Assembly: GCA_947184155.2 (NCBI GenBank)
Contig: CAMXCT020006567.1
Coordinates: 310,001-374,000 of the forward strand
Source of the DNA: Cladocopium goreaui
Lineage: Eukaryota > Sar > Dinophyceae > Suessiales > Symbiodiniaceae
DNA length: 64,000 bases
Reading direction: 5' to 3'
This document shows, in pieces, positions 32,109 through 64,000 of the stretch; the stretch's first letter is position 1, and each line of letters opens with the position of its first letter. The notes under the pieces were generated by a model, which saw nothing but the letters and a program-made list of their open reading frames with translations, was not told the DNA's origin and made no database searches. Both the position numbers and the translations under genes were made by a program.

Positions 32109-35100
32109 ATCGTTTTAAAAGGAACGAGAGATGCCTTCAAGACCTTCATGTCATGTCAGAATTGCACTTTACCTGCGGGATATCAAACACAGAAATGGGT
32201 GGTATCAACATGTATAAACTATATAAACCATCCCCAAACAGTAGGTTTATTGTTGCTTGCCCACATTCATGGACAAACACACAGACATCAGAATCTCTGT
32301 TCGCTGACCGCTGACCAGGATCTGAAAAACTTCAATCTCCTGGTGGACAGCATTGATGACATCTTGGAGCGTGCGGATAAGCATCTCAGGTGGTGTAGCC
32401 CTTGACGAAACTCCCGGAGATCCCAAAGTCCCAAAAGTGAGGTTTTTTTGTTTTTGTTTTTTTTTGTTTTTTTGATAAGTATAGAATCAATGATCCACTA
32501 CCCAAAGTGGGTTTTTAACATAGCCATGGTATAGATGGCCCATAGAAATAGATGGTTTACCTATTAAACATGGTGATTTTCCATGGCAAACTGTTAGTCA
32601 TAACCAGAGGGTAATTCATTTTAATGAGCCCGAAGGGAATATCCACAATGATCCAGATTTTTGAGTGAACTTCTCTCCAGCAAGTCATGATGGCATCCAG
32701 CGATTTTTTTTCTGCACAGGGACGCCGCTGCTGGTGTGCAAAGAGAGGCGCCTCAGCAGTGGTGTAAGGTTGGGGTATTGGTGTCGCACGGAATCTTGGA
32801 ACTCCAATGACGATTTCAAACTAAGAGATGTTATGCGATGTTTTTTTTATTATCCTTTTCCTGTTGTTTATATTGTTTTCCCTGTTGTTTTAAGCCCTCT
32901 TATAGTCCAGATAGAATCCCAGATCTTCTCACTTTTGAGTAGTATTTCCACATCCATTCTGACCAGGAGGTGGCAGAAGAGGAGGAAGCACCTGCTGCAG
33001 GCTCTGACTTTGGGTTTCCGGGAGCCTGGAGATTACAGGGACATTTGTTGGTTGTCCATTGATGTGGGAAACCAAGAATAAACCTACCATTTGGGGATGG
33101 TTTATACCACCCATTTATCATGATCTTGGGGATGGTGTATGATTCCGTTTACCACATGATTTCGGCAAATCAATTCCAAGTGAGCCACGTGGTGAAAAAC
33201 ATCTATGACAATCTATGAAGCAGCAGATTTTGGACTTGCTCGCAGATTTGAATGTCCCATGACCCCTGTTACGAATCTGTCAATTTTCACTATAACTTTT
33301 TTTTTGGCACAATCAGCGTCACAGTTATGCTTGATGATTCCTCTTGATTATGCCGTTCATTGTGACCAGGATTCATTCATGGTAAGGATATATAAGGATG
33401 CCGGTTATGCCGATAATAGGTTTTTCCATTATAAACCATAGAAATAGTTCATTCATCCACTCAAAATGAAGTTGTGCCATGTTATGCCCCCTTCCTCCCT
33501 CTTTCCTTCGCCTTTGTGCGAGGACCGGCCGGTCCTCAACCTGGGAGCCGATTGCCGAAGCCGCAGGTCGTCCCGGACTCCGGTCGCATTGGATCTATTT
33601 TCCAGCTATGAGTGGAAAATAGTGGATAGCCTATTTTGGATCATCAATCTATGGGATAATCCTATATTTTCAATGTTTTTCTTGTTTCCGAAGATGATAT
33701 GGGATGATCCACTATGATTCGTGGTTTTGGGGCTGAACAAGCAGGATGGAGGTTGATGATAGCCATGGCAGAACCTCTTATATAACTTTCAGACGCCTCA
33801 CACACAGAATTTGGGTGTTATGGCAGATAGAAAAACATAGACTCAATAGATTCTCAATAGATTCTCAACAGACCATCAACTTTTTGGGTGTTCCAACAGG
33901 TTCCAACATCTGATGCCATGGGCTTTCCGCAGCATCCCCCTTTGTACCAGGTGCGCTGGCGACATCTCATAGACAACCATCGGACGCACTTTGTTCCGAG
34001 GCCCAGCCCCCTTTTTAAGCCATTGAGCGGGCTGAGAAGCGGGGCTGAGATGGGCTGAGTGCTCTACACGACGAATGTGAATCCACCAATTCTGGTCTAC
34101 CGAGTCTACGGATGTATATTTAACATATTTAGCAACTAGCATCATTTAGCATATTTCAGCATGCCAATCTTCAGCCACGGACCAACGCTGCGATCACTTT
34201 CCAGTGACGACTTCATTTCAGAGACCTTGGCGCAGATTGCTGGTGAAGCACAACGAGTCCGAGTCTCCCTTGGCGCCAAAGCTTGTGGAAGCGCAGGAGA
34301 AGGTGAGTCACGAGTGTGTGGGATTTTCGGGAGATTTTCATTGTTTATTGTTTCATGTATTGTACAATGTTTTGTTTATTGAGTTTTGGGTTTTACAAAC
34401 AAGATCCAAACAGTAGCAAATCTTTGGGATGTGGGTATGGATCAATACCTATTAATACCATTTTTAGTGGGATGAACATCCATAAATCCCAGCTATTTTG
34501 ATGTGAACTACAGGGGTACAAGGTTTTGACACACTGCCATGTCATCTTTTTGTTTGATATTGGTCCTATTGGTTCATAGTTGGGTAAGGCTTGCTGATTC
34601 CTCAAACGCTCAGAAAGCTCCGGAGACTTTGCATGTGCAGGTTGGAATCAGACCCGCATCTGCTGGCAGTGGCGTCCTGTGCTTAGCACTTTGAAGGCAC
34701 ACATTTCTGTCATCATTCGTTTAACGTTTGCATGATGAAACTTCACATTGCCAAAGACCATCTTCATATACAATCGCTATGAAAATCATCTTGATCATCT
34801 TGATATACAATCATAGAAAAGAATATGATACCCTCTGGTTATTTAACATAGCCATGGAAAATCACCATTTTTAATAGGTAAACCCAGTTAAACCCAGGTA
34901 AACCATCTATAAATGGGCCATTTTCCAAGCAGCTACTGTTGATTTCAAGTGAGTTGATCTTCGTCAGGGGAAGACCGCGGAGACACCAGAGCTGTCATCA
35001 CATCTGGCGGCCATGGGGGTTGGAAATCGACCCCAGGAGCACATCTGATCTGCCGAGAATCGATGGGATGATGAAATGGGATAATCAAACATGCTCAAAC

Positions 35101-35270
35101 ATGCCAAAACCAGGGATATCCACTGGATACCCTCATATCCACTGGATATCCACTGGATATCCAAACAGTTCGCGATTGGTCGAGTCGTATGTCGAACTTG
35201 GCCCTGCCGTTGAAGCCGAACGTTCGGATCCCAGGACTTGGCTCTGGCGCATCCATACGAAGAGGCTCTG
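32109..35270 (+). CDS. RRP6/EXOSC10 nuclear exosome 3'-5' exonuclease, N-terminal exons
   Basis: Exons proposed: 32109-32159 (IVLKGTRDAFKTFM), 32319-~32389 (DLKNFNLLVDSIDDILERA), ~32967-33030 (frame uncertain), 34222-34302 (RPWRRLLVKHNE), 34968-35036 (ETPELSSHLAAMGVGNRPQ) and 35235-~35270 (DLALAHPYEEAL). FNLLVDSIDDILERA matches the end of the PMC2NT domain that docks RRP6 to its partner (Rrp47/C1D in model organisms). AHPYEEAL corresponds to the HPY motif that precedes the exonuclease domain in EXOSC10. The exonuclease exons resume only at 41113, after a different gene. The intron after 35036 needs a GA donor and is flanked by the shared sequence CCCAGGA. The start codon is not identified. 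Confidence 0.7.
32498..32614. mobile_element. Introner-like TIR element, family D copy 1
   Basis: The right arm CCATGGCAAACTGTTAGTC then ATAACCAGAGGGTA is well preserved; the left arm (TTTTTAACATAGCCATGG) is diverged. The centre GATGGTTTACCTATTAA is shared with the other family D copies. Confidence 0.7.
34429..34543. mobile_element. Introner-like element, family A copy 3
   Basis: Nearly identical to the copy at 18466-18580, flanked by ATGT on both sides. In an RRP6 intron. Confidence 0.85.
34828..34927. mobile_element. Introner-like TIR element, family D copy 2
   Basis: Left end ATACCCTCTGGTTAT and CCATGGAAAATCACCAT; right end GGGCCATTTTCC, truncated relative to the copy at 35289. In the same RRP6 intron as family A copy 3. 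Confidence 0.75.
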
Positions 35271-35288
35271 ATGAACAGAATATTGTGA

Positions 35289-35408
35289 TACGATCTGGTT
35301 ATGACTAACAGTTTGCCATGGAAAATCACCATGCTATTAATAGGTAAACCATCTATTTCGATTAGGGCCATTTTCCATGGCAAACTGTTAGTCATAACCA
35401 GACGGTAT
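35289..35408. mobile_element. Introner-like TIR element, family D copy 3 (best preserved)
   Basis: The two arms, starting ATACGATCTGGTTATGACTA and ending TAGTCATAACCAGACGGTAT, are near-perfect inverses over about 39 bp. The loop holds TTAATAGGTAAACCATCTAT. The element would fold into a long hairpin. Confidence 0.85.
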
Positions 35409-35930
35409 ATATAATATATTGTGATAAAATACTCTCATAAACATTGATATAATCACAATATGTTATTTTATAATATTTTGCAGTGATAATTGCATATACA
35501 CTCATAAATTATATATGATATATTGTGATACGATTGTCACAGTATTGTGACCATAGTATTGTGACAGTACATGATTTCAGTGATGAGTTCATGTTGTGAA
35601 TGTGTTCAGATGCCATGGCGTGCTTCCTGCAGCTGTCTTTGGCTCAATCTCACGTTAGTCAAGCTTCTTATCAGGCCCGTGCGACGCGATGCGTGCCAAA
35701 CACTTAGCTATTCAGCAAACACAGCATGACACGCTGTTTGCTGCAGCTACACTTGGGGTTTTCCATCATTTTCCACGGTTTTCCGGCAAACCAGCGGGGG
35801 GTCAGCCGGTGTCACCGCCCAGGTTGCTGCTTTCGTGATCTGTGCTTTGCCGCTGGTATGGGCAGGTTTGGTTGAAGGCCCGGATCCTCCGTCTGTTCTT
35901 AGAATCCACTGACCCATCCCGCTGTGCCAG

Positions 35931-38900
35931 ATCTTGGAGCTGTTCTTGGGGAGAGCCGTGCGCAGCAGTTGCAACGCGCTGCAGCGCCCTTGGAAGCGCA
36001 GATGAGAGCCACTGTGAAGGTGCGAGCGTTGGAGTCCATTCAATGGCCATTTCAGGAACCTAAATTGGAGGTACCTACCATATATAAGGCCTACTTTTCA
36101 GGCCTATGTAAGGGAATATCCCACAAAATATGGCCTTATATGGTACAGTACCTCCATTTTATAGGATCCTGGAATTCCCATTGATCCATTGCAAGTTCAA
36201 AGTCAGAGTCTTGGGTTGTTTTGGGTACCGTGTTGGACCAACGAATAAGAATTTGGACATATCCGTAGTGTAAATATACCGAAAGAATATATACATTATA
36301 CATTGATTCTCATATAACATATTTCATATATATATATATTATATATATAGATATGTACATATACACATCATAGTACAATATAGTACACATATTATATACA
36401 AATATATACTGTGAATCTTTGTGAATGGCATTGTGGTCTGGTCCTGTGAGGCCCTTCCCAAGACCCCTGACGGATGCCTGGCGTCCTCATCGGCGCGCTA
36501 TGCGTTGCATCGGCTCTTTGTGGAGAAGGGTTGGTTCGTGAAAGGCTTGCAGGAACTGGACCCTTCCCGTGCCCGGCTTGGTGCTTGGGGAGCTGGTGAT
36601 TTTGGGAATTGGAGATTGGAATTTTGTAGGGATGCAAAAATGCTTGTGAAAGTTGAGTGATGTCTAAAGTGGGAACTTGATGGAGTTTGGGCCGAGGCTC
36701 TTGATTTTTGTCAGAAAATGAGATGTTTCTGGATGTAAAGAGGTGCAGCAACTCATTTCCCCATCGCAGTGATCTATTTTTTTTTGGCGAAATGGGGGGG
36801 GGTATGGGGGGATCAGGGCCTAGGAATCCCAGGAATGGGTGGGTTTCTTGTCGCTGAATAGTTCCACCAGAGGAAAGATTTGGATGTGTCTGCAAATGGG
36901 GTATATACCATGGTATACCGCAAAGTGGCAATTGTACTTGGAAAAATCCGGAAAAATCATGATCCAAAAATATCCAAAGTGGGATTTCCAACTTTTTGGA
37001 TCAAGCAGTGGATGGCGGTTTCACTGCGACCCGAGGTGAAATCGGCCACGCCAACGTCTCCTCACCGGTGGTCATCCTGCAGGACCAGGTGCCAGCTGTC
37101 GTGAAGGCCCTCTTTGAACAACGACTGCAGCCACTGGGCCCTGAAACCACCGGTCGACCTGGGAAAAAATGTGGATTTTTGCAGAGAAACACGTATGTTC
37201 CATGCTAACTAAGAATCTGAAAATGATGACATCAATCCAATCAGTTTTCATATCATTTCTTGCCTTTTGGCCATTTTAAAAAGCTATTTTCCATATCATG
37301 TTCCATATCATTTTCCAAATTTTCCATCACTTTTCAGTGATTTTTCCACCAATTTTTCCATGGTCTGAGCCAAGGCAAACCGGACTCTGCCTCACTGACC
37401 TCGCTCTGCTGGCAGCGCTGTTGGAAGATCTGGTTCCATGGTCGAAATGGCGTTTCATGATGAAAAAATGGTGGTTTAACGAAGAGTTAGAGGATGATTT
37501 GTTACATGAATTCACAAGAAAAACTGTGGTGAATTATTAAAATTCTGGGCAAACTATTTTATCGATTTCTTGGATGATGGGGTGATTGAGGGTTGGCGAG
37601 TACATCACTGACAAATGAAAGATATGGCGAGTCAAGTGAGTTGTGATCAAAGCATATTGCTGGTTTCCGTTTCAGCAAGATGTTTCATAGACCCTAGAAA
37701 AAGGGAACATTTACACCAACCCCTTTTTTTTGGGGGGCAACCCGCAACCCCCTGGCAGTTTCCTGCAGAGTTACCATGATTAGGTGCACCGTGAGACCAT
37801 GCAGCGCGTCTCTGCTGCCTTCAGAGCCAAGCGAATGCCCCTGGTGGGGAAAGTCTCAGTGGAAGAGCTGGGAAAACTCTTGGATTATGTGATGATGAGC
37901 TACATCCTTGAGGTCCGCATGAAATGCATGAACAGATGCAGATCTGGAGGTTTCCTGAAAGATTGGGGGATCCACAAGAAAAACCATGGTTTGAAAAATA
38001 GTGAAATGGTCGTTCATGACTTGGATGATTTGCGGGGACCCCCAGTTTAGGAAACCTCCATATGAAATGATATGAACATGGAATGCATGAATTGGATTGA
38101 ATTGGTTCATGACGGTTGTATGGATGCAGATGAGAAATGGATATGATTCGATGTATTCGATGTCTCTTTCACGTTTTTTTCAGCTTTTTGCAAGGCTTGT
38201 TTCTTTGAAAGCCTGGCTGTTGGACGTAGGTGGCGAACCTGGATGGTACCAACCTGGATCAACAGGATGTTTCCCTGTACCTTTCGGGGCAGCGTCCCAT
38301 GGAGGAGGTCTATCCCAATTGGCCCAAGACGCAGAAGTTCCTGCGCGACATCCAAGGGGTGGTGGCCCCGGCCCGGCGGGGCAGCTTGAGCTTTGAGGAG
38401 ATCACCCATGTCGTTGAGGAGATCCATGAGCACTATGGCCGTTGGCATGATGAGGTGGACTGCCAGGAGATGAAGAATGTGCCTTGGAGATAACTGGATT
38501 TCCCTGGTTAAGGCCTGGTTAAGGCCTTGGCAGGGCCATAGTTTTTTTGGGGGATGGTTTTGGGATGTTTTCTTAGGAGTTGGAAGGTCTTGAGGAAGCT
38601 GTGCACTTCGTGTAGAGTGGTTTGGAAGGGCAGTTGAAAAAGGTAAGCAGATTCAGTGCTGGCAAAACGTTGGTGAGAAATCTGAGAGGCTGGAATCATT
38701 CTGGAAAACTGCTTGAAATATCCATAATTTGAATAAATACCTTGGGATTTCTTGGGATTTCATTGAAATTTCAAGGTGTTTTTGCACATTTTGCGCCCAA
38801 AGGGTGTCCTTTAGGTGCTGTCTGGTATGGAGCGTTGTCCCGGCCGGGTGGATCTTTCGCGCTTCTACGCGGCCTCTCTGTACGAAGAGAAGTGGCAGTT

Positions 38901-40800
38901 CAGTGAAAGCGTGCCTTGGAGATATGTCCAGTCATTGGATTGAGGGAAAATCGGAACCGGAAACCATGGTTTTTACCATTAAATATAGGGTTTTCCTGTA
39001 AAATTTCCCTTAAACCAATCCATTGATATGTTTTTTTTTGTGAACTAATGTCTTATGGGAACATATCCCAACAAAATTGCAAGACTATCTGCTTGTACAT
39101 GTTCATGGCAGTCATCAATGTCAGTTGATGATTGATGGTCGTTCTTCACGCTTTCGTGTGGCACGGATCACCCTTCGGCTTGAGCCCAGGTGGACTATCT
39201 GCGTGACCTAGGGGCCCTGGATGCCTCCCGCCAGCAGCCTGCTGTGGTGGTGTCCAACTACCTCTTGGGCGCATCCAACTGCATCGGCACCTCACGGTTC
39301 TACGCCCAGTGCTGTGTGGATCCCTGCGATCAGCTGATTGAGACCTGGCGGATCGGAAGCGGGTGTGGGAGGGAGGAGCTGGTTTGGTGGTCGGTTTTTT
39401 GCCCTTAGATTCTTGAGATTTTGAGGTTGGGTGGGGTTGAATTTCACTCTTGATGGTCAAGTTCATGAAGTCCCCCAACTCCCCCGATGTTTTATGATTT
39501 TCATTAGACATGTTTCCCAGAATAGGGGTACCCAGAACACGATTGGTTTCCCCGTTGATCGCCAAGAACTTGAAGGATTTTGACCATGGCTTACCAAAAT
39601 GGTGGTTCCCCAAAATTCGTTTTTTGATACCATCAACATTTATCAACCGGAATTTACCCTAATTTACACAAGAACTGATAGGATTGATAGGGTTCCACCA
39701 TGGATTGCTTCACTCCTGAGGTCAAAACCCTGGTACCTAACCCCAAGTCATAGCTGGGATTTATGGATGTTCATCCCACTAAAAATGTATCTATAGGTAT
39801 TGACCCATACCCAGTTGAGTTTCCACTGAAAATCCAGAAAACCCTATATTTGATGGTAAAAACCATGGTTCCTGTAGATTTTCCCTTAAACCAATCCTGT
39901 GATTATATGACTTCGGGAACCCCCGGAGTCACCTGAGGCGAAGTTGGAGAAGGCCCTGGCTGCTCCCTCGGCCCCCGCCGCTTCGGTGGCGGCGGCCGTC
40001 CAGGCGGTGCTGCCGGCGCCGGCGCCAACGCAGCACAGCTTGGAGGAAATCGCCCCGGGGCTCAGTTGGAGGTCCAAGGGATAGACATTTTCGGCATGTG
40101 ATATGGGATGATCACTGTACTGGTGGAATGTATGGATTGATACATATATCATATCATGATATTAGTGTATATATATATAATTATATAAAATTGTATGAAT
40201 AGAATCTTAGATAGAACATGGATAACTATGGGTTGACTGTGGATTTTACCTTGATGGAATAGCAAAAATCATACTCTGAAAATGTGAGCCTGAACTGAGT
40301 TGTTCTGCCACGCCAAGGCTCACAATGGTCTGGTGGTGATCCACGGTCGGCTCTTTTCCCAATGGATGCACCACGCCTATCCCCAGGAATGTCCTATGCC
40401 TCCCAGCATCGGGCTGCGCTTACGCCAGGAGCTGCCGAAGGATTTCACCCTGCGAACCGGACAGGACTACATCGCCACGGAGAAGGAGATGAAACATTTC
40501 GCACCAACGAAAAGTGATGTGAAGGTGATGAAAGATGATATGAAAGATTGCAAATTACCTTGGACTTCTGGAGAAGAACTCTTGGATGAAAGTCATCCAA
40601 GTCACCAAGCTCCACAAGTTCCACAGCCAAACCTCATCTTCCACAGCTTCGCCCCCATGGCCATGGCGGCCGTGGCGGCCGTGGCCGCTTCCCTCCTGGG
40701 CCTGGCGGCGGTGAGACGTCGCGTGGCGAGTCCCAGCGCGCGGGGTCCGCTGCTGCAGATCGAAGCCGCGACTGCAGCGGCTCCGGCGCCGGTGGTGTGA
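35931..40800 (+). CDS. Conserved dinoflagellate-type protein with C-terminal membrane anchor, nested within RRP6
   Basis: Exons proposed: 35931-36019, 36451-36580, 37009-~37150, ~37375-37434, 37784-37912, 38230-38478, 38815-38910, 39190-~39350, ~39939-40075, 40318-40800 (TGA at the end). Most junctions are phase 0. The order of landmarks is ALPKTPDG, SARYALHRLFVEKGWFVKGL, PVVILQDQVPAVVKALFEQRL, GLCLTDLALLAALLEDLV, EEVYPNWPKTQKFLRDI, VVEEIHEHYGRWHD, CPGRVDLSRFYAASL, VDYLRDLGALDAS, NYLLGASNCIGTSRFY, VIHGRLFSQWMHHAYPQECP and LPWTSGEELL. It ends with one hydrophobic helix (AAVAAVAASLLGLAAV) followed by arginines, so the bulk should face the lumen or outside. I recognise this as a large protein family of dinoflagellates without a known function. 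The upstream exon encoding the start is not identified; a candidate signal-peptide ORF (MACFLQLSLAQSHV) begins near 35619. Confidence 0.7.
36059..36167. mobile_element. Inverted-repeat element, family F
   Basis: TAAATTGGAGGTACCTACC then ATATATAAGGCC on the left faces GGCCTTATATGGTAC and GTACCTCCATTTTATA on the right. Lies in the first recognised intron of the nested gene. Confidence 0.75.
36292..36410. repeat. AT-rich microsatellite
   Basis: TATATA/ACATAT tracts, intronic. Confidence 0.75.
38933..39026. mobile_element. Introner-like TIR element, family C copy 3
   Basis: From CATTGGATTGAGGGAAAAT to ATTTCCCTTAAACCAATCC, with CCATGGTTTTTACCAT in the middle (inverse orientation relative to copy 2). 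GATATG occurs just outside both ends. Confidence 0.8.
39721..39812. mobile_element. Introner-like element, family A copy 4 (inverted, diverged)
   Basis: The reverse complement carries GGGTATGGGTCAATACC, TTTTTAGTGGGATGAACAT and AATCCCAGCTAT, as in the other family A copies. It directly abuts a family C copy. Confidence 0.75.
39812..39902. mobile_element. Introner-like TIR element, family C copy 4
   Basis: GAAAACCCTATATTTGATGG, AAAAACCATGG and TTTTCCCTTAAACCAATCC match copy 2 closely. The left arm is degraded. Confidence 0.7.
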
Positions 40801-40882
40801 GACGTGAACCACGGCAAAAGCTGCAGAAAAAATGGGGGATATCCTCGGGGATATCTGAACTTATGACAACTTATGTAACTTA

Positions 40883-41007: not shown

Positions 41008-41112
41008 GATAAGCTTGTCACTCAAACGCCAGGAGTGTCATGAGTTGATCGCTGATTCCACACCTGCGGCCAGGAACTGAATGGTCTCAGTTGGCCTGAC
41101 AGCTTTTTTCAG

Positions 41113-54716: not shown

Positions 54717-55561
54717 TGCCATGATTTCATCACTGTTGGAATCTGATAGGATGAGCATCCTCAGGACAAGGACTGAGGGTTCTGAGGGTTCTGAGTCGTT
54801 CAGCACCCCAGTCACCATGGGATACCATGGGTCATCGGTCAGGAGGATGACGATGGCGAAGGGGAAATTCGGCAGACTCGGAGGCAGGGCGCTGCCCTGG
54901 AAGCAGCACCTGACTGTGTACCAAAATGTCATCCATATAAGTCTAAGAAGTTCATTATGTTCATAATATATGGCATTCTCCAAGAATAAGACAGAAGACA
55001 TTTTGGATATGGATTTGTAGAATATTCTAATGATTTGTATGACATATTTGGGTATCCCACTGTATCCCTAATTCCACGAATCACCACGTTTTCCCCTTTT
55101 TTGGGTAACCGCCCTGCAGGCTTCGCGATGCTGGAGAAGGAACGACGCCACACAAGGCGCGAGAACAACAGTTTTTACAGATTGTGATAGTTTTTTTTGT
55201 AAATGATTCGCAGATTATACATAATTATATGATATTATACGTATATATATATATATAATATGGATTAGACATACAAGAATGTAGATCACCTACACATGCG
55301 TACATATTTGTAGATACGATTCATGGCTGCACTTCGTGACTTTCCAGGTGGCCGAGGTCTCTGACGCCCAAGGCTCAATGTTAGTCATCGGGCGACCCGT
55401 GGAAGACAGATCCATCCTGGGCTGAAAAACGGGCCCGCGGAAGTCTGGAAGGCTGGAGAGCAGGATGATAGACTGATTCATGTGTATATATATATATCTT
55501 CATATCTATATCTCAATATACATATGTTTCTATATATATATGTATAATATTATTCATGCAA
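54717..55561. other. Spacer between the transporter gene and the retrotransposon
   Basis: AT microsatellites are at about 55210-55260 and 55480-55550. No further exons are recognised. It belongs to the large RRP6 intron. Confidence 0.5.
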
Positions 55562-55642
55562 ATGTCTTCTGCTTGAGTCATAGGCTGAAACCCTCTTCAT
55601 CCGATGTGTTTGGCTCTACTTGTTTAAGGGTCTTTTCCTAGG
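55562..55642 (+). repeat. Retrotransposon A1 repeat (5' end)
   Basis: 81 bp, from ATGTCTTCTGCTTGAGTCAT to GGGTCTTTTCCTAGG. The same 81 bp are found at 62930-63010 and 63294-63374. Confidence 0.95.
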
Positions 55643-55646
55643 GTTA

Positions 55647-56309
55647 ATGCCCCAGCACCCCCTGTGCAACAAGTGCCGGCAGATCCCTGCTGTCGAAGGG
55701 GATACCTGGTGCTACGGGTGCGCCGGCTGGGAAGCCATCGGGCGCGAGCTATCAGGATCCTGGGACGGGCAGGGAGCCCGGAGAGTGGCGAACGACCTGG
55801 TCGTGAACGCGGCCAGACAGGTCCGAGCTCTTCGCTCGCTGTCGGCTGGACTTGCGAGGGAGAGCGGGCCAACTGGTGGTGCTGGGGAGACCCGTGCGCC
55901 AAAACGCGCGGCCAGTGAGGATCGCCGAGAAGAACGCAAGAGCTTGCCGAGGAGGAGATCGTCAGGGCACGCCGCCCCCAAGGAGGAACAGGAAAGCGAA
56001 GAAGAGGAGGACCCAGCAGAGGAGACTGACGAGGAGGACAGAAGAAGGAGGTCCAAACGCAGCCCGGAAGGGCCTGAGAGGAGCAGGGGAGGACACCGCC
56101 GTCCACCAGAACCTGATCGCTCTCCAGTTCCACCTGGGACTACATCTATCCGTGCTTCCCTGAGTCGTGCTGACAAGAGGCCAGCTGACAAAAGGAGCAT
56201 CACCCTCAGCGACGCCACGCCCACGGGACACGTCGTCGGGGAGGCCGAAAACATCAACGCCTCAAGCGGCTGGCAGAGAATCCTCATCTCGCCGTGCACC
56301 GCCATTTGA
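55647..56309 (+). CDS. Retrotransposon ORF1, zinc-binding N-terminus and charged tail
   Basis: 220 residues from the ATG at 55647. It begins LCNKCRQIPAVEGDTWCYGC, two CxxC pairs that can bind one zinc. The rest is low complexity: Arg-rich, then a Glu/Asp run (near residue 120) and Arg/Ser/Pro-rich sequence. This is consistent with a nucleic-acid-binding Gag accessory. An earlier in-frame start inside the A1 repeat cannot be excluded. Confidence 0.65.
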   Translation: MPQHPLCNKCRQIPAVEGDTWCYGCAGWEAIGRELSGSWDGQGARRVANDLVVNAARQVRALRSLSAGLARESGPTGGAGETRAPKRAASEDRREERKSLPRRRSSGHAAPKEEQESEEEEDPAEETDEEDRRRRSKRSPEGPERSRGGHRRPPEPDRSPVPPGTTSIRASLSRADKRPADKRSITLSDATPTGHVVGEAENINASSGWQRILISPCTAI

Positions 56310-56378
56310 GTGCGGACTTTTTGAAACTGGCTACATCCGAGTCTGGAGCACTGGGCTTGGATCGACTGGGCCGTTGAG

Positions 56379-58478
56379 ATGAATTTGGGCAGCGAAGGGA
56401 AGGAAATTTCTTTGGACGAAGATTCAGAGGAATGGAGTGCCCTTCATGTGGAGCCGGGCGCAGTTTTGGAAGTTGCGCTGGAAGCCACAAATCTTGGGGT
56501 CACAGACGAAAGTTGGGCCGCTTTCTTTGTAGAGAAACTGGAGAATCGTCTGGACGGTTCCTACCTTCTGACAACCGAGTGGTTGGGAGTCGAATCAGAC
56601 AGCCTTGTCTCTCTTTTAGAAGCTTTCTTCGGAGACGGAGTGCCCAAACTACATCTGTGTCCAAGCAAACCGTGCATGGAAGCTGGGTTTGGCGACGCGC
56701 TGGCTCCGGCCGTGTTGCACGTCACCCGCATCCGCTGGTGGAGACCAGACAACTTCAAAGCAGATTATTTGGGCCGCAACGAGATGGACCACTTGAAGAA
56801 GTTGTGGAAAGATTTGAAAAAGGCTACCGCGCCAAAGCGGCCTCGAAAAGCCAAGGCTGATGCTGGCGCTGGAAAACCTCCAGGCGCCGAAAAAGCAAAA
56901 GCCAAGGCGGGCCCAGCAAAGAAATCGCCCCCTGTCAAGGAGACAGAGAAGATGACAAAGGCCGACAAGGACAAGCTGCGGGCAAGGTTGGAGAAAGTCA
57001 GGCAACGCCACCATGGTACACCTGGGGATCCCCGGGATGTCGAAGAAGTGCCATCAGGCTCGGACCACTCTGGCGACGATGGCAAGGAGGAGTTGAGTCA
57101 AGGTTACTCACCATCAGAAGTCCTGGACACAGGCACCCTGTTGAGGAAGAAGACCCATCGTGGGAGAGACTCCAAGGACCACGACAAAAAGGCCCGGGAG
57201 ATAGTCCCATACGTGGGTTCAAGAGGAGATGGTACGAAGAGCTTGAATGGACAGTTGGTGAACCGGGCGCTGGCGATCGGCCGGGCGCGCCACGAGGAAC
57301 GCAAGAAGAAGAAAAAGAAGGGTTCGGCCGAGGCAGGACTGGAAGTCTTGCGGAAGTTGCTGAACCCAGACAGCAAGAAGAACAAGAAGGACAAGAAGAA
57401 CAAGAAAGAGAGAGATGGAGATGGCGACAAGAAGAAGAAGCGCAAGAAACGGAGGTTGGAGAATGGGGTGATTGTGAGCTCCAGCAGGAGCTCTTCAGAT
57501 ACCTCGGATCTGGAGGAGGACGAGGAAGCCAGTTCGGAGGAGACAGAACTGGAGGCGCCGATGAAAAAGAAGTCCAGAGCCAAGCCGGGTTCAGTGCTGG
57601 TGATGCTTACCGAGCACATCCGTGCGCAGATGGACCAGGAGGGGGCGACAGAGCTTCCCCGAGAAGAGAAGAAGGTGGTCTCGGGGGTGAAGGTGGTGTC
57701 ATATTTCCACCAACATATAAAAGCCACCTACCCTACACAGATGAGAGAACTCCGCGAGATGTACACCTTGAGTGCAGCGCTGGACTTGCTTCGCCGCGGG
57801 GACCTGGCAAAGCTGGGGGACACCCTTGCTGCCAGGTTCATGGCGATTCACCAGGCGTTGCTGGACCAGAACTGGACGACGGCAAGACACATGGAGCTGT
57901 ATCCGCTGGAAGACGCTTCCGCTGCGGCAGCTTCGTTGGTCCTGGCGTCCAGAAAGCACTCAAAGCTGGTCGAGAAGGTGCAGGGCAAAGGAGGTCCAGG
58001 ATGGCCCTCATGGGGGGCCAAGGGACGCCCACGTGGAAAGGGCGACTGGGCCGAGCATGGAGACGGAGGAGCCAAGGGCAAGAAAGGCAAGGGCGACAGG
58101 AAAGGAAAAGGAAAGGGGAAGTACAAGTCCCCACAGGCAGCCGATCAGGGGGCTGCAGAGTGGGCACGAACCAAGGACAAGCCAGAGGGGGCGAAGCGAA
58201 CCCTCCGGCGACTGAGCTGCTGGCGAAGGCCGTGCAGTTATCAGATGAGTATTTGCAGCAGATCAGCCTGGCTGACATTTTTGAGTCATGCCGGGACCTG
58301 GATTCGTGTGGGTGCGTGCTGGCATGGGGCCTTTGCAACGCCAAACAGATCTCACGAGCTCAGGGGTGTAGCCGTTTTGAGGATGGCATCTTCAGTGCCG
58401 ATGCGTGGCCCAGGGCTCGGCGTGCGCGTCAGGCCCTTCCGCTATGCGAGGGAGACTTCACTGAATTTATTAACTTGA
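56379..58478 (+). CDS. Retrotransposon ORF2, Gag-like
   Basis: 699 residues. The N-terminal ~145 residues look globular (SWAAFFVEKLENRLDGSYLL, HVTRIRWWRPDNFKADYLG), followed by a very Lys/Glu-rich region with several poly-Lys runs. A helical segment follows (YFHQHIKATYPTQMRELREM, LDLLRRGDLAKLGDTLAARF) that resembles the capsid-like C-terminal part of DIRS Gag, then a Gly/Lys-rich basic tail (GKGKGKYK). The last ~150 codons overlap the Pol frame, so Pol is probably made by frameshift or reinitiation near 58150-58200. Confidence 0.7.
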   Translation: MNLGSEGKEISLDEDSEEWSALHVEPGAVLEVALEATNLGVTDESWAAFFVEKLENRLDGSYLLTTEWLGVESDSLVSLLEAFFGDGVPKLHLCPSKPCMEAGFGDALAPAVLHVTRIRWWRPDNFKADYLGRNEMDHLKKLWKDLKKATAPKRPRKAKADAGAGKPPGAEKAKAKAGPAKKSPPVKETEKMTKADKDKLRARLEKVRQRHHGTPGDPRDVEEVPSGSDHSGDDGKEELSQGYSPSEVLDTGTLLRKKTHRGRDSKDHDKKAREIVPYVGSRGDGTKSLNGQLVNRALAIGRARHEERKKKKKKGSAEAGLEVLRKLLNPDSKKNKKDKKNKKERDGDGDKKKKRKKRRLENGVIVSSSRSSSDTSDLEEDEEASSEETELEAPMKKKSRAKPGSVLVMLTEHIRAQMDQEGATELPREEKKVVSGVKVVSYFHQHIKATYPTQMRELREMYTLSAALDLLRRGDLAKLGDTLAARFMAIHQALLDQNWTTARHMELYPLEDASAAAASLVLASRKHSKLVEKVQGKGGPGWPSWGAKGRPRGKGDWAEHGDGGAKGKKGKGDRKGKGKGKYKSPQAADQGAAEWARTKDKPEGAKRTLRRLSCWRRPCSYQMSICSRSAWLTFLSHAGTWIRVGACWHGAFATPNRSHELRGVAVLRMASSVPMRGPGLGVRVRPFRYARETSLNLLT

Positions 58479-60757
58479 TGATGGCAACACCTCTGGATCA
58501 GATCCGTGAGGTTCAATGGCTCCGCACCTGGAATCACACAGCATGGAAGCTGGTGGCATGTTATGCCTGCAATGCGCTGATGGGGGCTGCCAGTCCCTTG
58601 CCCAGCGGCCGCTGGTCGAAAGCCGAGCGGAAGCTAGTGGGTGCCGTGGGCTCAGCGGTCGACCGACTGCTCGGCCACGGCCATGCAGCACCGGCGGACC
58701 CATGGCTGGTTGAAAAAGAGCTGAACGGGCGCAGGGTCAGTTATTCAGGTGAAGAAATAGGCATATGTCACCCACTCAGCCTAGAGCAGGTCCTTCCAGC
58801 TTTGCCACCCCCTGAACATGGAGGTTCTATTGAATTAACCCGTTTCCTTTCCTCTTCGTCATGCGATTTCTTGAAACACCCCTTAAAGAGTCTGGTCGCA
58901 GATGAAGGACAAGAACTACCAAAACTTCAGGGAAAGATCCATGTTAAAGAAGGCGAAATGGAACTTATTTCTTCAGAACTGGTTAAAAGGGGGGTTTGCA
59001 CATGGATACCAAGCGAATCAGTCCTGCATTTTCGGGGGCAGCCGGTACTGAACGGGTTGTTTGGCGTGGCTAAACCCACAACTCTTCCCAATGGCAAATC
59101 CACGCTGAGACTCATCATGAATTTGGTCCCCAGCAACTCAGTTATTAGGAGCTATGAAGGGTCGGTTAAAAGCCTACCACAGATTACCTCATGGATGAGT
59201 ATTGTACTGGAAGAAAACCAACAGATGAGGATTTGGCAGAGCGACATGTCCAGTGCTTTTTACCTGTTCCGTTTACCTGCTTCATGGGCCCCACTACTAG
59301 CCTTCAACGTTGCTCAAGATGGTGATCAGCTTGGTTTAACCCCCGGAAAAATGTACAATTTAGCTTGCACAGTATTACCAATGGGCTGGACGAATTCCGT
59401 GTCCCTAATGCAGGAAGCTAGCGAAAACATTTTATTAAGGGGGATGCTGTCAACTTGTTCACAAATCACCCGAAACAATCCACTTCCTATTTGGGCTACA
59501 GGGTTGGTTTCAGAAGCTTATGACAAGGGGAAAACATTCTGGCATGTCTATCTGGACAACTTTGCAGCTGGGGAAGTGGGAACAGCAGACAGTTTCTTTG
59601 AGGGTGGTAGTGACCTACATAAACTGGCGGAGACAGCATGGGCCAATGCCAAAGTGGTTTCATCCCCCAAAAAGAGAAAGGTGGCGGAGTTAGAGGCTCA
59701 AGAGCTTGGGGCGCATATCAACGGAACAGTGCAAACAATTGGAGGATCTCCTGAAAGGCTTGTAAAATTGGTTCAGGCAACCCTTTTCCTTCTCAGTAGG
59801 CCTCACCTCTCAAAGAAGCTCACTCAGATCGTCGCAGGGAGATGGATTCATGTATTCCAATTTAGGAGGCCTGCCATGTCCTTTTTGGAGTCAACATGGG
59901 AGTTTATTGCAAAGAAGGGTTTGAACCTTCACCTGGTGAATCGAGTGAGGCGAGAACTGTTCAATTGCATGTGCTCGGTGCCCTTCCTGCACACTTTTCT
60001 GGGGGCGTCGGTGGCAGGAGTCACAACGGCCAGTGACGCATCAAACAGCGGTGGAGCCGTTGGAATTGCAAAGTCACTCACAGCTGCCGGGCAAGACTAT
60101 GTGACGACCCTGGCAAACTTTCCCCGGCCTCGCCGTGTGCCGGTACTGGTGATCTCTTTATTCAATGAGATAGGCGGTGCCCTGAGAGCCTATGACGTGT
60201 TGAGTGTAGTCCCTATGGGAGCTGTTGTGTTTGAAATTCATCCTCCAGCCAACCGAGTCACTATGAAGAGGTGGCCACATGCAGAAATATGTGGCGATGT
60301 CCGAAGTCTAGATGAGGTGATGATTCGCAACTGGCTGGATAAATATATCCCCTTGCGAGAGGTACACCTATGGGCAGGTTTTCCTTGCAATGACCTGTCA
60401 TCGGTCAGAGCTGGACGTCAAGGGCTTCAAGGACCTGGTTCAGGCCTCTTTTGGGAGGTGGTAAGGATCAAGCGGCTTTTGGAGAAAGAACTGCCACCTC
60501 ACGTAGCCCTCAAATACGTGGGGGAGAACGTGGCCTCCATGGATAAGGAGCACTGTGAGGAAATCTCCAGTGAGCTGGAAGTCAGACCTTATCACCTCAA
60601 CCCTTCAGGCGCCGTGCCAATGCAGAGGCCCAGGCTTTGCTGGACATCCGAGGAGATCGAGGGTGCCGTGGAAGGGATCACCTTTGAAGAGAAAACGCAC
60701 CGGACAGAGATCACAGCAACCGCCCCATATCCCACCACTGGTTACGGAGGGTTGTGA
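58001..60757 (+). CDS. Retrotransposon Pol part 1: reverse transcriptase, RNase H N-half, C5-cytosine methyltransferase N-part
   Basis: Pol-like sequence starts near 58190. RT: PNGKSTLRLIMNLVPSN, motif A IWQSDMSSAFYLF (Asp), LPMGWTNSVSLMQE (motif B), and motif C VYLDNFAAGE with Tyr517-Leu-Asp519-Asn520, where the second Asp is Asn. The first RNase H strand follows (TTASDASNSGGAVG, Asp near residue 678). From about residue 716 the fold changes to a C5 methyltransferase: SLFNEIGGALRAYD (motif I, AdoMet), GFPCNDLSS (motif IV, catalytic Cys796), KYVGENVASMD (motif VI) and QRPRLCW (motif VIII). The frame ends at 60757 in the middle of that domain, and the next frame continues it. Confidence 0.85.
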   Translation: MALMGGQGTPTWKGRLGRAWRRRSQGQERQGRQERKRKGEVQVPTGSRSGGCRVGTNQGQARGGEANPPATELLAKAVQLSDEYLQQISLADIFESCRDLDSCGCVLAWGLCNAKQISRAQGCSRFEDGIFSADAWPRARRARQALPLCEGDFTEFINLMMATPLDQIREVQWLRTWNHTAWKLVACYACNALMGAASPLPSGRWSKAERKLVGAVGSAVDRLLGHGHAAPADPWLVEKELNGRRVSYSGEEIGICHPLSLEQVLPALPPPEHGGSIELTRFLSSSSCDFLKHPLKSLVADEGQELPKLQGKIHVKEGEMELISSELVKRGVCTWIPSESVLHFRGQPVLNGLFGVAKPTTLPNGKSTLRLIMNLVPSNSVIRSYEGSVKSLPQITSWMSIVLEENQQMRIWQSDMSSAFYLFRLPASWAPLLAFNVAQDGDQLGLTPGKMYNLACTVLPMGWTNSVSLMQEASENILLRGMLSTCSQITRNNPLPIWATGLVSEAYDKGKTFWHVYLDNFAAGEVGTADSFFEGGSDLHKLAETAWANAKVVSSPKKRKVAELEAQELGAHINGTVQTIGGSPERLVKLVQATLFLLSRPHLSKKLTQIVAGRWIHVFQFRRPAMSFLESTWEFIAKKGLNLHLVNRVRRELFNCMCSVPFLHTFLGASVAGVTTASDASNSGGAVGIAKSLTAAGQDYVTTLANFPRPRRVPVLVISLFNEIGGALRAYDVLSVVPMGAVVFEIHPPANRVTMKRWPHAEICGDVRSLDEVMIRNWLDKYIPLREVHLWAGFPCNDLSSVRAGRQGLQGPGSGLFWEVVRIKRLLEKELPPHVALKYVGENVASMDKEHCEEISSELEVRPYHLNPSGAVPMQRPRLCWTSEEIEGAVEGITFEEKTHRTEITATAPYPTTGYGGL

Positions 60758-61736
60758 ATGGCCTGGAGGAGAGGAAGGACACCTCCTACCAACTGCGATG
60801 AAGTCCATCAAGCGAAAAAGACCGCCAGAATCCCCGGCAGGTTTGAACCGTTGCGACTGGGATACAATACATAGATGGACTTCAGATGATTTCCGGTTCC
60901 CCCCATACCACTACCAACAACGTTTCATTTTTTGGAGGGGTAACAACTGGAGACTTTGTAATGCGTCTGAGAAGGATTTGTTGCTGGGGTATGGATGGGA
61001 ACACACCAAACTATGTTACAATGCTTCAACCATAAAAGGCAATCCACAACAACATGAGGATGAGCGCCTAAGTCTTCTGGGAGATAGTTTCAGTGTTTTC
61101 TCTTTCGTGATCCCTGCTGCAGCACTGTGCCGAGCTTATATCCCCAAACTACATTATCACCAACTGGCATTGCGCATGGGGCTTGCACCTGGGTTTACAT
61201 GTCCTTTGAATCTGGTTGCACCATTGGGGCGTAAGCTACAGTATGGGAATGCTGACAATCCTTCAACTCAAACAGTGGAACAAATCAACAAAGTCCTATT
61301 GGCTAGGGTGAACCATACAGGCTCAGACATCAGGCTCACGACAGGCGAGGTACTATCACCGAAGTCTGCACCCCGTCAGTCAGTCCAAGCCGGTTGGTGG
61401 GAATGGAAGCCACTTTTCAAGGTCAAATGGAAGCTTTCTGAACATATAAATGTACTGGAGCTTCGATCCATTCTTCTTGCAGCCAAATACCATATACTCC
61501 ATCTTCATCAGGTTCATTGCCGAATTGTTCACATAACCGACTCCTTTGTCTGCATGAGTGTGATATCTAAGGGTCGAACTGGAAGTAAACAACTGGGAAG
61601 AGTTTTGAAAGAACTGAACGCATGGATGCTTGGTTTTGGTATCACCATGATTGTAGGACATGTAGAATCGTCGGAAAACCCGACGGATGGGGAAAGCCGT
61701 TCGATGGCGCTTCAGTGGCAAGCGGACTCGCGCTGA
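60745..61736 (+). CDS. Retrotransposon Pol part 2: methyltransferase C-part and RNase H C-half
   Basis: This frame is open from 60555, but only from about 60745 does it read as Pol (EWPGGEEGHLLPTAMKSI). It supplies the end of the methyltransferase (NASEKDLLLGYGWEHT, motif IX/X region, then LSLLGDSFSVFSF = motif X). RNase H follows: HINVLELRSILLAA (Glu), HITDSFVCMSV (Asp), GHVESSENPTDGESR (last Asp). A frame change is needed at about 60740-60757, by programmed frameshift or a single-base lesion. Confidence 0.8.
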
Positions 61737-62634
61737 AAGAATTCGCCAGAGAGCGAATGTCGTGCTGCGAGATGCCGGAATAACGGAGAAAACTCAGGTC
61801 CGTTATTACCTAGGCATGAAGCAAATCCTTCCGGTGCTTGAGCGCAGCCGCTCGCTGGTTGAAATGGATAGCAACGTGTCTGAATGGATACAACAAAGAT
61901 GGGAGGCTGGTGATGCTATCCATCAGGTGAGTGATGCATTATGTGCCATACACCACTATGAACCTTGGACGCGTCGTCACATCCCCGAAAGTTGGAAGAT
62001 CTTTGCTATCTGGCGCAAACTTGAGTCCTCTGACCGAGCGCCGCCGTTGAGTCAACAGATAGTTGATGCCTGGATCATGTACTGCATAGCTCACTGCAAC
62101 CTAGAGTTTGCTTCGATGCTTGCATTGGGCTTTTACGGTTTGCTGCGAACTGGTGAGTGCCTCCAGGTAAGGCCGAAGGACCTTTTGATAGGCAGTGACA
62201 ATGGTGTTATCAGCTTAGCTGAAACTAAATCAGGGCTCAGAAACGCTGCAAAAGAAACAGTCAGTGTCCAATCTGACCTTGCGCTGGAAGTTCTCCGTGC
62301 GACCATCAAACAAAAACGAAGTTTGCAGATGGATCGAGTACCTATTTGGTCTAAATCCGCGCAGTGCTTTAGGAACACCTTTGCCCATCACATCAAGAGG
62401 TTCAACCTGGAGACTCACAGGTTCCGACCTTATAGCCTCAGACGAGGCGGAGCAACAGCCCTGTTTCAACGTACAGGATCCATGGAGGCAGCATTGCTCA
62501 AAGGACGTTGGGCTTCGACAAAAGTGGCCAAAATATATTTGGCCGATGGCCTTTCTTTCCTGCCAGGTTTGCGTTTCTCTGCGAAGGCCCGGGACATGCT
62601 AGCAGAGTGGAGTCCTGAGCAGCAACTGAGATGA
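61687..62634 (+). CDS. Retrotransposon tyrosine recombinase
   Basis: 315 residues, overlapping Pol by 50 bases in another frame. It has an N-terminal helical core-binding region, then the catalytic domain: LGFYGLLRTGECLQV (Arg I), ETKSGLRN (Lys), RPYSLRRGGATAL (the usual HxxR reads YxxR here), LLKGRWAST (Trp in the H/W position) and AKIYLADGL (probable Tyr nucleophile). The enzyme would insert circular cDNA by site-specific strand exchange, as in DIRS-type elements, in place of an integrase. Confidence 0.88.
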   Translation: MGKAVRWRFSGKRTRAERIRQRANVVLRDAGITEKTQVRYYLGMKQILPVLERSRSLVEMDSNVSEWIQQRWEAGDAIHQVSDALCAIHHYEPWTRRHIPESWKIFAIWRKLESSDRAPPLSQQIVDAWIMYCIAHCNLEFASMLALGFYGLLRTGECLQVRPKDLLIGSDNGVISLAETKSGLRNAAKETVSVQSDLALEVLRATIKQKRSLQMDRVPIWSKSAQCFRNTFAHHIKRFNLETHRFRPYSLRRGGATALFQRTGSMEAALLKGRWASTKVAKIYLADGLSFLPGLRFSAKARDMLAEWSPEQQLR

Positions 62635-62686
62635 CCCGATAATTTTGGTTCCATCAAGCAACTAAGTTGCTCAAGAATGGGAACGT

Positions 62687-62929
62687 GGAAAGACCCCTGC
62701 CATGGGGGCATTTGTTTTCCGTTTTTCTTTTGCGATACCTCTGCCATGAGGTCAAGAAGATCATTATGATCACTTTTGCAAAAGTCTCTGCCATGAGACA
62801 TGAAAGCACAGCAGATGGAAGAACCATTTGAAGGTTTGAATTTTTCCAGGCAGCAGTTTGGAAGACATTTGGTCCCAACTGCTGAAAAACCTGCTGCCAC
62901 GCATCGAAAAAGAAGTGGAGTTGATGCCT
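62687..62929 (+). repeat. Retrotransposon B1 repeat
   Basis: 243 bp, GGAAAGACCCCTGCCATGGG to GAAGTGGAGTTGATGCCT. It contains CTGCCATG three times about 48 bp apart. It directly precedes A2. Confidence 0.92.
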
Positions 62930-63010
62930 ATGTCTTCTGCTTGAGTCATAGGCTGAAACCCTCTTCATCCGATGTGTTTGGCTCTACTTGTTTAAGGGTC
63001 TTTTCCTAGG
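62930..63010 (+). repeat. Retrotransposon A2 repeat
   Basis: Same 81 bp as A1 at 55562. Confidence 0.95.
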
Positions 63011-63050
63011 CCCATCCCTCTACCTCCCTCGCTTGCTTTTTTGCTTGGAA

Positions 63051-63293
63051 GGAAAGACCCCTGCCATGGGGGCATTTGTTTTCCGTTTTTCTTTTGCGAT
63101 ACCTCTGCCATGAGGTCAAGAAGATCATTATGATCACTTTTGCAAAAGTCTCTGCCATGAGACATGAAAGCACAGCAGATGGAAGAACCATTTGAAGGTT
63201 TGAATTTTTCCAGGCAGCAGTTTGGAAGACATTTGGTCCCAACTGCTGAAAAACCTGCTGCCACGCATCGAAAAAGAAGTGGAGTTGATGCCT
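63051..63293 (+). repeat. Retrotransposon B2 repeat
   Basis: Copy of B1, separated from A2 by a 40-bp pyrimidine-rich spacer (63011-63050). Confidence 0.92.
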
Positions 63294-63374
63294 ATGTCTT
63301 CTGCTTGAGTCATAGGCTGAAACCCTCTTCATCCGATGTGTTTGGCTCTACTTGTTTAAGGGTCTTTTCCTAGG
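63294..63374 (+). repeat. Retrotransposon A3 repeat
   Basis: Third copy of the 81-bp A repeat, followed by the same 40-bp spacer. Confidence 0.95.
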
Positions 63375-63414
63375 CCCATCCCTCTACCTCCCTCGCTTGC
63401 TTTTTTGCTTGGAA

Positions 63415-63657
63415 GGAAAGACCCCTGCCATGGGGGCATTTGTTTTCCGTTTTTCTTTTGCGATACCTCTGCCATGAGGTCAAGAAGATCATTATGATCA
63501 CTTTTGCAAAAGTCTCTGCCATGAGACATGAAAGCACAGCAGATGGAAGAACCATTTGAAGGTTTGAATTTTTCCAGGCAGCAGTTTGGAAGACATTTGG
63601 TCCCAACTGCTGAAAAACCTGCTGCCACGCATCGAAAAAAAAGTGGAGTTGATGCCT
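63415..63657 (+). repeat. Retrotransposon B3 repeat and right end
   Basis: Third B copy. It ends GTTGATGCCTAT and then host sequence (ATCTATGTCTC) begins, which marks the right end of the element. Confidence 0.9.
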
Positions 63658-63724
63658 ATATCTATGTCTCAATAGATGTATTTACCTAAATCAGACAGAT
63701 GTTTCTTCACACTGCCCCGCCAAG

Positions 63725-63987
63725 GTGAAACTGGATAAGAAGTACCAGACAGCGGATTGGAGGGAACGACCCCTTCCACAGGTGCCCTGATTCTGCTGGC
63801 TTGTTGACATAAGAAGAGGTCAGGAGAAAATTCAAAAATCAAACCAGATAGCTTTCTGATGATAGATATTATTCAATGATTTCAATGGTTGATGTTTTCA
63901 CTGACTAATATGCAGACCCACAGAAGGAGGATGCAAAACGGATCCGCGCATTTTTGATGCTTCGTGGGCAGGAGATGGTGTACTACG
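63725..63987 (+). CDS. RRP6/EXOSC10 continuation: last exonuclease-domain exons in the window
   Basis: Exon 63725-63781 reads VKLDKKYQTADWRERPLPQ, and a further exon from about 63972 reads EMVYYAR before a possible GT donor (63988). Together they give the RRP6 motif normally written ADWRxRPLPxEMxxYAR, which follows the FSLANLVSHFCG region found at 42970-43022. The last catalytic Asp and the HRDC domain must lie beyond 64000. The intron from 43023 to 63724 would be 20.7 kb with GA-AG ends. Confidence 0.8.
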
Positions 63988-64000
63988 CACGTGTTGGGGT

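What the first reader, a model, noticed from the sequence alone, without database searches (positions are those of the whole stretch)
32109..64000. RRP6/EXOSC10 gene apparently carries two whole same-strand genes and a retrotransposon in its introns
RRP6 motifs occur in correct order and on one strand in three blocks: PMC2NT and HPY exons (32.1-35.3 kb), the DEDD core (41.1-43.0 kb), and ADWRERPLP / EMVYYAR (63.7-64 kb). Block 1 to 2 is interrupted by a multi-exon gene of a dinoflagellate-type family with its own stop codon (35.9-40.8 kb). Block 2 to 3 is interrupted by an MFS transporter gene (47.1-54.7 kb) and an 8.1 kb retrotransposon. Same-strand nested genes pose a real splicing problem: the host transcript must skip many competing splice sites. 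Two such events in one gene would be striking, and may relate to spliced-leader trans-splicing releasing the inner mRNAs.
Basis: partly seen in the sequence, partly recalled or inferred. Interest (0 to 1): 0.88.

Follow-up and report, generated by a model that had tools for sequence, protein, structure and literature searches.

The report
RRP6 gene hosting two same-strand genes
In what looks like a dinoflagellate genome, the gene for the RNA-degrading enzyme RRP6 is spread over some 30 kb because two of its introns contain other intron-bearing genes and a mobile element, all read in the same direction; such nesting is already reported to be common in another dinoflagellate, so this is a clear example of a known kind and not a new kind.

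Summary
Splicing the RRP6 exons across both long gaps (35265-41073, 5,809 bp; 43011-63724, 20,714 bp) gives an open frame that aligns without a gap at either junction to human EXOSC10 and yeast RRP6 (phmmer 7.7e-42). At each junction one phase-0 GC-AG pair beats the other stop-free pairs scored. The host continues past the window (3.1e-50). A search of the 1.17-Gb assembly found no second close copy: seven of nine matches are exons of this locus, two are distant. The first gap holds a multi-exon gene with its own stop. The second holds an MFS-like transporter gene, starting near 45.7 kb and not 47.1 kb, and a DIRS-type retrotransposon with a cytosine methylase domain.

Same-strand nesting is the best reading, but expression and spliced-leader release of the inner mRNAs are untested. 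It is less exceptional than claimed: in Polarella glacialis 8.4% and 6.5% of genes lie in introns of other genes, with full-length transcript support reported, and the element matches a published design. New member of a known kind.

The parts
32319..32387 (+). RRP6 exon piece with the tail of a PMC2NT-like domain (DLKNFNLLVDSIDDILERADKHL)
   Evidence: Pfam PF08066 18.6 bits, below the 23.3 cut-off; exon ends not fixed
34614..34640 (+). RRP6 exon (KAPETLHVQ), provisional
   Evidence: one of 22 in-frame choices upstream and 24 downstream, picked by eye; open
34968..35036 (+). RRP6 exon (GKTAETPELSSHLAAMGVGNRPQ), provisional
   Evidence: read by eye, no independent match
35235..35264 (+). RRP6 exon with the HPY motif, GC donor
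35265..41073 (+). RRP6 intron of 5,809 bp, phase 0, GC-AG, holding inner gene 1
   Evidence: best of 49 stop-free donor/acceptor pairs in the scanned ranges, score 37 against 27; no gap there against human and yeast
35930..40800 (+). Inner gene 1: 10 exons modelled, 527 aa open, own stop at 40798-40800; first exon not located (35930 is a convenient start, not a splice site)
   Evidence: joined exons without stop; splice choices, some picked by eye among several
41074..43010 (+). RRP6 DEDD core, six exons
   Evidence: Pfam PF01612 122.6 bits for the spliced product
43011..63724 (+). RRP6 intron of 20,714 bp, phase 0, GC-AG, holding the MFS gene and the retrotransposon
   Evidence: best of 66 stop-free donor/acceptor pairs in the scanned ranges, score 87 against 60; no gap there against human and yeast
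45714..54716 (+). Inner gene 2: MFS-type transporter, 12 exons modelled, 363 aa, stop at 54714-54716
   Evidence: Pfam MFS_1 39.3 bits, cut-off 33.4; frame open; stop seen
49080..53750 (+). 4,671-bp intron of the MFS gene holding a 172-bp tandem array and a 312-aa ORF with a weak PARP-like match (15.7 bits, cut-off 26.7)
55553..63663 (+). DIRS-type tyrosine-recombinase retrotransposon: A repeat, ORFs, then B-A-B-A-B in 364-bp tandem units
   Evidence: PF00145 and PF00589 above cut-off
63725..63781 (+). RRP6 exon VKLDKKYQTADWRERPLPQ
63972..63992 (+). RRP6 micro-exon EMVYYAR; the gene continues beyond the window (64107-64131, 64190-64280 in window numbering; HRDC-like pieces near 65809, 66737 and 67008)

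Best explanation
One RRP6/EXOSC10 gene of a dinoflagellate-like alga, about 30 kb over the modelled exons (34.6-64.3 kb) and probably nearer 35 kb, with two introns that host other genes on the same strand. Shown by sequence: collinear exons, matching phases, restored conserved spacing at both long junctions, open inner genes with their own stops, no second close RRP6 copy found in the assembly. Inferred: the host pre-mRNA is cis-spliced across both long introns, and the inner genes are made as separate mRNAs whose 5' ends come from spliced-leader trans-splicing at acceptors that lack a committed upstream donor. Each primary transcript would then give either the host mRNA or an inner mRNA from a given intron. 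Probable origin (inferred): DNA-level insertion of intron-bearing genes, or growth of introns around them, since both inner genes keep introns and so are not retrocopies; the retrotransposon came by its own transposition.
For: The human EXOSC10 match rose from 111.9 bits for a first hand-read core to 146.4 bits once the HPY exon was added and junctions were set, with no gap at either long junction; the gain is not due to the junctions alone. Among stop-free donor/acceptor pairs scored, one of 49 and one of 66 wins. Downstream exons carry the alignment on, ARADTHYLL-CYD, to 3.1e-50 with yeast RRP6. The acidic residues and the tyrosine of the DEDD-Y signature are present (residue roles recalled). 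Of ten modelled host introns in the window, eight are 186-466 bp and two are 5,809 and 20,714 bp; donors are 5 GT, 3 GC, 2 GA, in line with dinoflagellate splice sites as described in PMC11453091 (passages). Own-genome search: 7 of 9 matches are this locus. Nested genes with full-length transcript support are reported in Polarella (passages).
Against: No RNA data. Several exon ends were chosen by eye among alternatives, and host exons upstream of 34.6 kb are unresolved. The PMC2NT match is below cut-off. The HRDC pieces give only 5-7 bits. The two off-locus matches (E about 0.06, 21% and 25% identity) span most of the exonuclease core in single long open frames and were not characterised; the weakest own exon scored about as weakly (E 0.044). 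The right end of the 20.7-kb intron lies about 60 bp from an 8-kb repeat element, a usual place for assembly error. Three other MFS splice models scored below the Pfam cut-off (26.1, 29.4 and 30.4 bits) and one gave no match. Reading frame does not protect against host-inner fusions: 8 of 9 modelled acceptors of inner gene 1 and 5 of 11 of the MFS gene are phase 0, like the host donors.
Confidence: 0.82

Rival explanations
1. Assembly error: the MFS gene, the retrotransposon or inner gene 1 was joined wrongly into an ordinary RRP6 locus.
For: A repeat element with near-identical tandem units (99.7% over 613 bp) ends about 60 bp before the host exon at 63725; no reads could be checked.
Against: Each insertion would need two wrong joins that leave the next host exon in the right order, strand and phase, and it would have to happen twice. 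The window and the 20 kb beyond have no N, the contig is 1.12 Mb, and it runs through long near-identical tandem repeats, which suggests long reads (inference).
Confidence: 0.08
2. A dead RRP6 copy with insertions; the working gene lies elsewhere.
For: Very long introns and an inserted retrotransposon; two distant off-locus matches in long open frames were not characterised.
Against: The frame is open through 13 modelled exons with the DEDD-Y residues kept; no second close copy in the 1.17-Gb assembly at this sensitivity. The assembly may be incomplete.
Confidence: 0.04
3. The RRP6 mRNA is put together by trans-splicing of two or three separately made RNAs, with the inner genes lying between independent transcription units.
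For: Not excluded by sequence; dinoflagellates trans-splice a leader onto mRNAs (PMC7245778, passage).
Against: Donor and acceptor signals of the ordinary kinds, same strand, right order; long cis introns are on record (a 26,372-bp intron in C. cohnii, cited in PMC11453091, passage).
Confidence: 0.03

Closest known systems
Nested genes of Polarella glacialis (PMC7245778; passages read)
   Same: Genes inside introns of multi-exon genes; several per host occur; dinoflagellate gene structure; full-length transcripts reported in support
   Different: The example described there holds arrays that include light-harvesting genes in an alanine-tRNA ligase gene. The pipeline allowed inner genes only in introns over 10,000 bp, so a 5.8-kb case like inner gene 1 would have been missed. 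The strand of the nested genes is not stated in the passages I saw.
Nested genes of man (PMC3192792; abstract and passages seen)
   Same: Gene within an intron; same-strand nesting is the minority there (about 63% of nested human genes lie on the opposite strand); nested genes are tied to intron retention, exonization and cryptic polyadenylation
   Different: No spliced leader in man (recalled); about 41% of nested human genes are single-exon, while both inner genes here have introns
SymbioDIRS-Dnmt3 retrotransposons (PMC5890265; passages read)
   Same: A - coding region - B - A - B repeats, cytosine methylase in the large ORF, tyrosine recombinase in a separate ORF, reverse transcriptase too divergent to align well with Pfam
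   Different: One more B/A unit in the tail here; membership of the methylase in the Dnmt3 clade not tested

Membership tests
RRP6/EXOSC10 | DEDD-type 3'-5' exonuclease domain of RRP6 type | tested here: met
   PF01612 122.6 bits; the 13 best PDB sequences of 30 matched are RRP6/EXOSC10, best 3.1e-50
RRP6/EXOSC10 | catalytic D-E-D-D with tyrosine | tested here: met
   AVDVEHH, HGAD, YYARAD present in the spliced product; residue roles from recall
RRP6/EXOSC10 | N-terminal PMC2NT domain | tested here: inconclusive
   18.6 bits, cut-off 23.3; the own-genome family search rang nowhere, its 14 controls included
RRP6/EXOSC10 | HRDC domain | tested here: inconclusive
   ALTEWRDLLARNLDE aligned to yeast and human at 5.1 and 6.6 bits only
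Same-strand nested gene pair | host exons on both sides belong to one reading frame | tested here: met
Same-strand nested gene pair | inner gene has its own start | tested here: inconclusive
   MFS ATG at 45714 provisional; first exon of inner gene 1 not located
Same-strand nested gene pair | inner gene has its own stop, frame open | tested here: met
   MFS stop codon seen
Same-strand nested gene pair | separate transcripts of host and inner genes | not testable with these tools
   no cDNA at hand
MFS transporter (inner gene 2) | match to Pfam MFS_1 above cut-off | tested here: met
   39.3 bits, cut-off 33.4, for the product joined from DNA; three other splice models 26.1-30.4 bits, one without match, one hand-trimmed 51.6 bits
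DIRS-type retrotransposon with DNMT | A-ORFs-B-A-B split repeats | tested here: met
   A at 55553, 62921, 63285; B at 62687, 63051, 63415
DIRS-type retrotransposon with DNMT | tyrosine recombinase and cytosine methylase domains | tested here: met
   PF00589 29.5 bits (cut-off 27.1); PF00145 27.3 bits (cut-off 22)
DIRS-type retrotransposon with DNMT | reverse transcriptase | tested here: inconclusive
   PF00078 11.4 bits, cut-off 29.6

The most novel reading that the evidence does not exclude
The nesting links the genes by regulation: each RRP6 pre-mRNA yields either the host mRNA or an inner mRNA from a given intron, depending on whether the GC host donor or the spliced leader wins the first inner acceptor. 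Because RRP6 is itself the nuclease that clears unspliced and excised RNA in the nucleus (recalled), its level would feed back on how much inner-gene RNA survives.
Probability: 0.04. Interest if true: 0.8.

Novelty: new member of a known kind. Interest (0 to 1): 0.42.

Why it matters
It is a compact natural test of how a genome with spliced-leader trans-splicing tells host splice sites from those of genes nested on the same strand: one host gene without a second close copy in this assembly, two inner genes, GC donors at both long introns, and little frame protection against fusions. It also shows a nested gene in an intron below the 10-kb limit used in the published Polarella annotation, so that count may be too low.

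Tried and rejected
Second RRP6 copy: no close one found in the assembly; two distant matches were not followed up. Retrocopy origin of the inner genes: rejected, both keep introns; no spliced-leader relic within 3 mismatches in the window. Capture of the inner genes by a mobile element: no repeats pair the two flanks of either gene in the self-comparison at E 1e-6. RNA families: none at gathering threshold. Relatives in the viral collection: none of 9 candidate stretches; in the prokaryote genomes: 1 of 219 candidate stretches, a distant bacterial locus, L001, not used. MFS splice models: 30.4 and 26.1 bits with two choices of the third exon, no match when the first exon was left out; a hand-trimmed variant scored 51.6 bits and its untrimmed form 29.4, but the DNA does not offer the splice site the trimmed one needs, so the 39.3-bit product joined from DNA is reported. 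A PDB search with the MFS product at E up to 10 gave only one chance-looking hit, a designed protein at 0.044. Copies of the inner genes and of the boundary DNA elsewhere in the genome could not be searched: those requests did not complete. Minus-strand ORFs upstream were not scanned, and of the + strand stop-to-stop ORFs of 120 aa or more before 32 kb I scanned 10 of 18. No paper on RRP6 in a dinoflagellate nested-gene setting appeared among the 8 listed of 117 papers holding at least two of four terms; 4 papers held 'nested genes', 'dinoflagellate' and 'intron' together. Literature searches; of the papers listed, passages of four were read (PMC7245778, PMC11453091, PMC5890265, PMC3192792), none in full.
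Full report
WHAT WAS CHECKED. The finding says that RRP6 motifs lie in three blocks on one strand, with two other genes and a retrotransposon between them. The window is stretch 310001-374000 of contig C5926 (1,121,305 bases) in a 1,165,616,438-base assembly of 6,202 contigs, organism not named. That it is a dinoflagellate is inferred from the GT/GC/GA donors (compare PMC11453091) and from a DIRS element with a cytosine methylase (compare PMC5890265). The upstream genes recognised by Pfam (EF-hand, S1, Rieske, CoA-transferase III) are on the + strand too, but only + strand ORFs were scanned (10 of 18). No tool named the species.

THE HOST GENE. Enumeration of donor (GT, GC, GA) and AG acceptor pairs gives a chain of exons whose product aligns over its length with human EXOSC10 (7.7e-42) and yeast RRP6 (2.2e-40). 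A first hand-read core had scored 2.9e-31, with a gap at the second long junction. The later model is both longer and better joined, so the gain is not due to the junctions alone. For the junctions themselves I scored the stop-free pairs in a set range against the human residues: the first junction has one winner among 49 (37, next 27), the second one among 66 (87, next 60). Both winners are phase 0 and GC-AG. The human segments came from the alignments made with that choice, so this is a consistency test and not a blind one. The segment at 63725 is the best of 127,888 positions, 67 against 25 for the next.

THE HOST CONTINUES. Twenty kilobases fetched beyond the window hold the next exons (64107-64131, 64190-64280 in window numbering), which extend the match to 3.1e-50 and supply the last catalytic acidic residue. 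Pieces resembling the HRDC domain lie near 65809, 66737 and 67008; they score 5-7 bits and are read mostly by eye. The modelled exons span 34.6 to 64.3 kb; with the PMC2NT-like piece at 32.3 kb and the HRDC-like pieces the gene would cover about 35 kb.

COPIES. The spliced core was searched in six frames through the assembly: 9 matches scored, of which 7 are exons of this locus (E 5.2e-20 to 0.044) and 2 lie on other contigs (E about 0.06, 21% and 25% identity, in open frames of 588 and 438 aa). A second close copy should have matched exon by exon. The two distant matches may be other exonucleases of this fold; they were not followed up. One own match shows a TGA inside, but it reaches beyond the modelled exon, which is itself open. 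The assembly may be incomplete. A search with the PMC2NT family alone found nothing, but its 14 controls found nothing either, so it tells nothing.

INNER GENE 1 lies in the host intron of 5,809 bp. Ten exons (35930-40800) join into 527 open residues with a stop at 40798-40800, leaving 273 bp to the end of the host intron. Pfam gives nothing above cut-off. I recall similar proteins in dinoflagellates, but no call confirms this. Its first exon is not located.

INNER GENE 2 is an MFS-type transporter: 12 exons, 45714-54713, 363 residues, stop at 54714-54716, MFS_1 39.3 bits against a cut-off of 33.4. Other splice models scored 26.1, 29.4 and 30.4 bits, below the cut-off, and one gave no match. 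Some splice sites, above all around the third transmembrane segment, are uncertain. A PDB search gave no convincing relative. One of its introns (4,671 bp) carries a 172-bp tandem array and a further ORF, so there is a third level of nesting.

THE RETROTRANSPOSON (about 55.55-63.66 kb) has an A repeat at its head and B-A-B-A-B in 364-bp units at its tail, a large ORF with a cytosine methylase domain and a weak reverse transcriptase match (11.4 bits, cut-off 29.6), and a tyrosine recombinase ORF. This is the published SymbioDIRS-Dnmt3 design, with one extra tail unit.

HOW IT LIKELY WORKS. Shown: anatomy, phases, open frames, no second close host copy found. Inferred: cis splicing of the host and release of inner mRNAs by the spliced leader. 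The competition is real on paper. The nearest modelled inner acceptor (36451) lies 1,186 bp from the host donor at 35264, close to the longest ordinary intron modelled here (1,100 bp, in the MFS gene), and coding sequence of inner gene 1 begins nearer still. Many inner acceptors are in phase with the host donors (8 of 9 and 5 of 11), so fusions would not be weeded out by frame. Human nested genes can cause intron retention, exonization and cryptic polyadenylation (PMC3192792, abstract and passages).

HOW NEW IT IS. In Polarella glacialis 4,898 (8.4%) and 3,359 (6.5%) of predicted genes lie in introns of other genes, 71.0% and 74.9% of the cases being single, with up to 18 and 24 in one host. 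The authors report support from full-length transcripts. Their table gives mean introns of 1,408 and 1,296 bp in its first two columns and roughly 390-660 bp in the next four (column heads not seen, so the assignment to P. glacialis and Symbiodiniaceae is inferred); 5.8 and 20.7 kb are long beside either. The case is a good member of a known kind. What it adds is a conserved host without a second close copy here, with two intron-bearing inner genes that share no Pfam family.

LIMITS. No cDNA, no reads, no sister-species locus. Requests for copies of the inner genes did not complete (genome search: 28 calls unanswered, 2 answered). The shared protein database was off.

Noticed in passing
window 23014-24109 and L002 3537-4632 (67537-68632 in window numbering): An intronless Rieske-protein ORF is present twice, 99.5% identical over 1,096 bp, with the copy limits almost at the ORF ends; the second copy lies about 0.5 kb after the last HRDC-like piece of RRP6 and might be nested in its last part.
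   Followed up: partly
window 10491-12782: 28 places within 2 mismatches of TTTTGGCTCAAG, the 3' part of the dinoflagellate spliced leader, mostly TTTTGGCTCAAA, spaced roughly 50-270 bp apart.
   Followed up: no
window 35288-35408, 32523-32608, 34816-34884: A 121-bp palindromic repeat just inside the first long host intron, with relatives in two other places of the host block; may be a small mobile or introner-like element.
   Followed up: no
window 44377-45501: Two short coiled-coil-like open stretches (LREENAKLRSQ, LREENDELRSK) between the RRP6 exon at 43.0 kb and the MFS gene; not assigned to any gene.
   Followed up: no
window 26.6-31.4 kb: A CoA-transferase III gene of several exons on the same strand ends, read by eye, near 31.37 kb, about 1 kb before the first RRP6-like piece.
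   Followed up: partly
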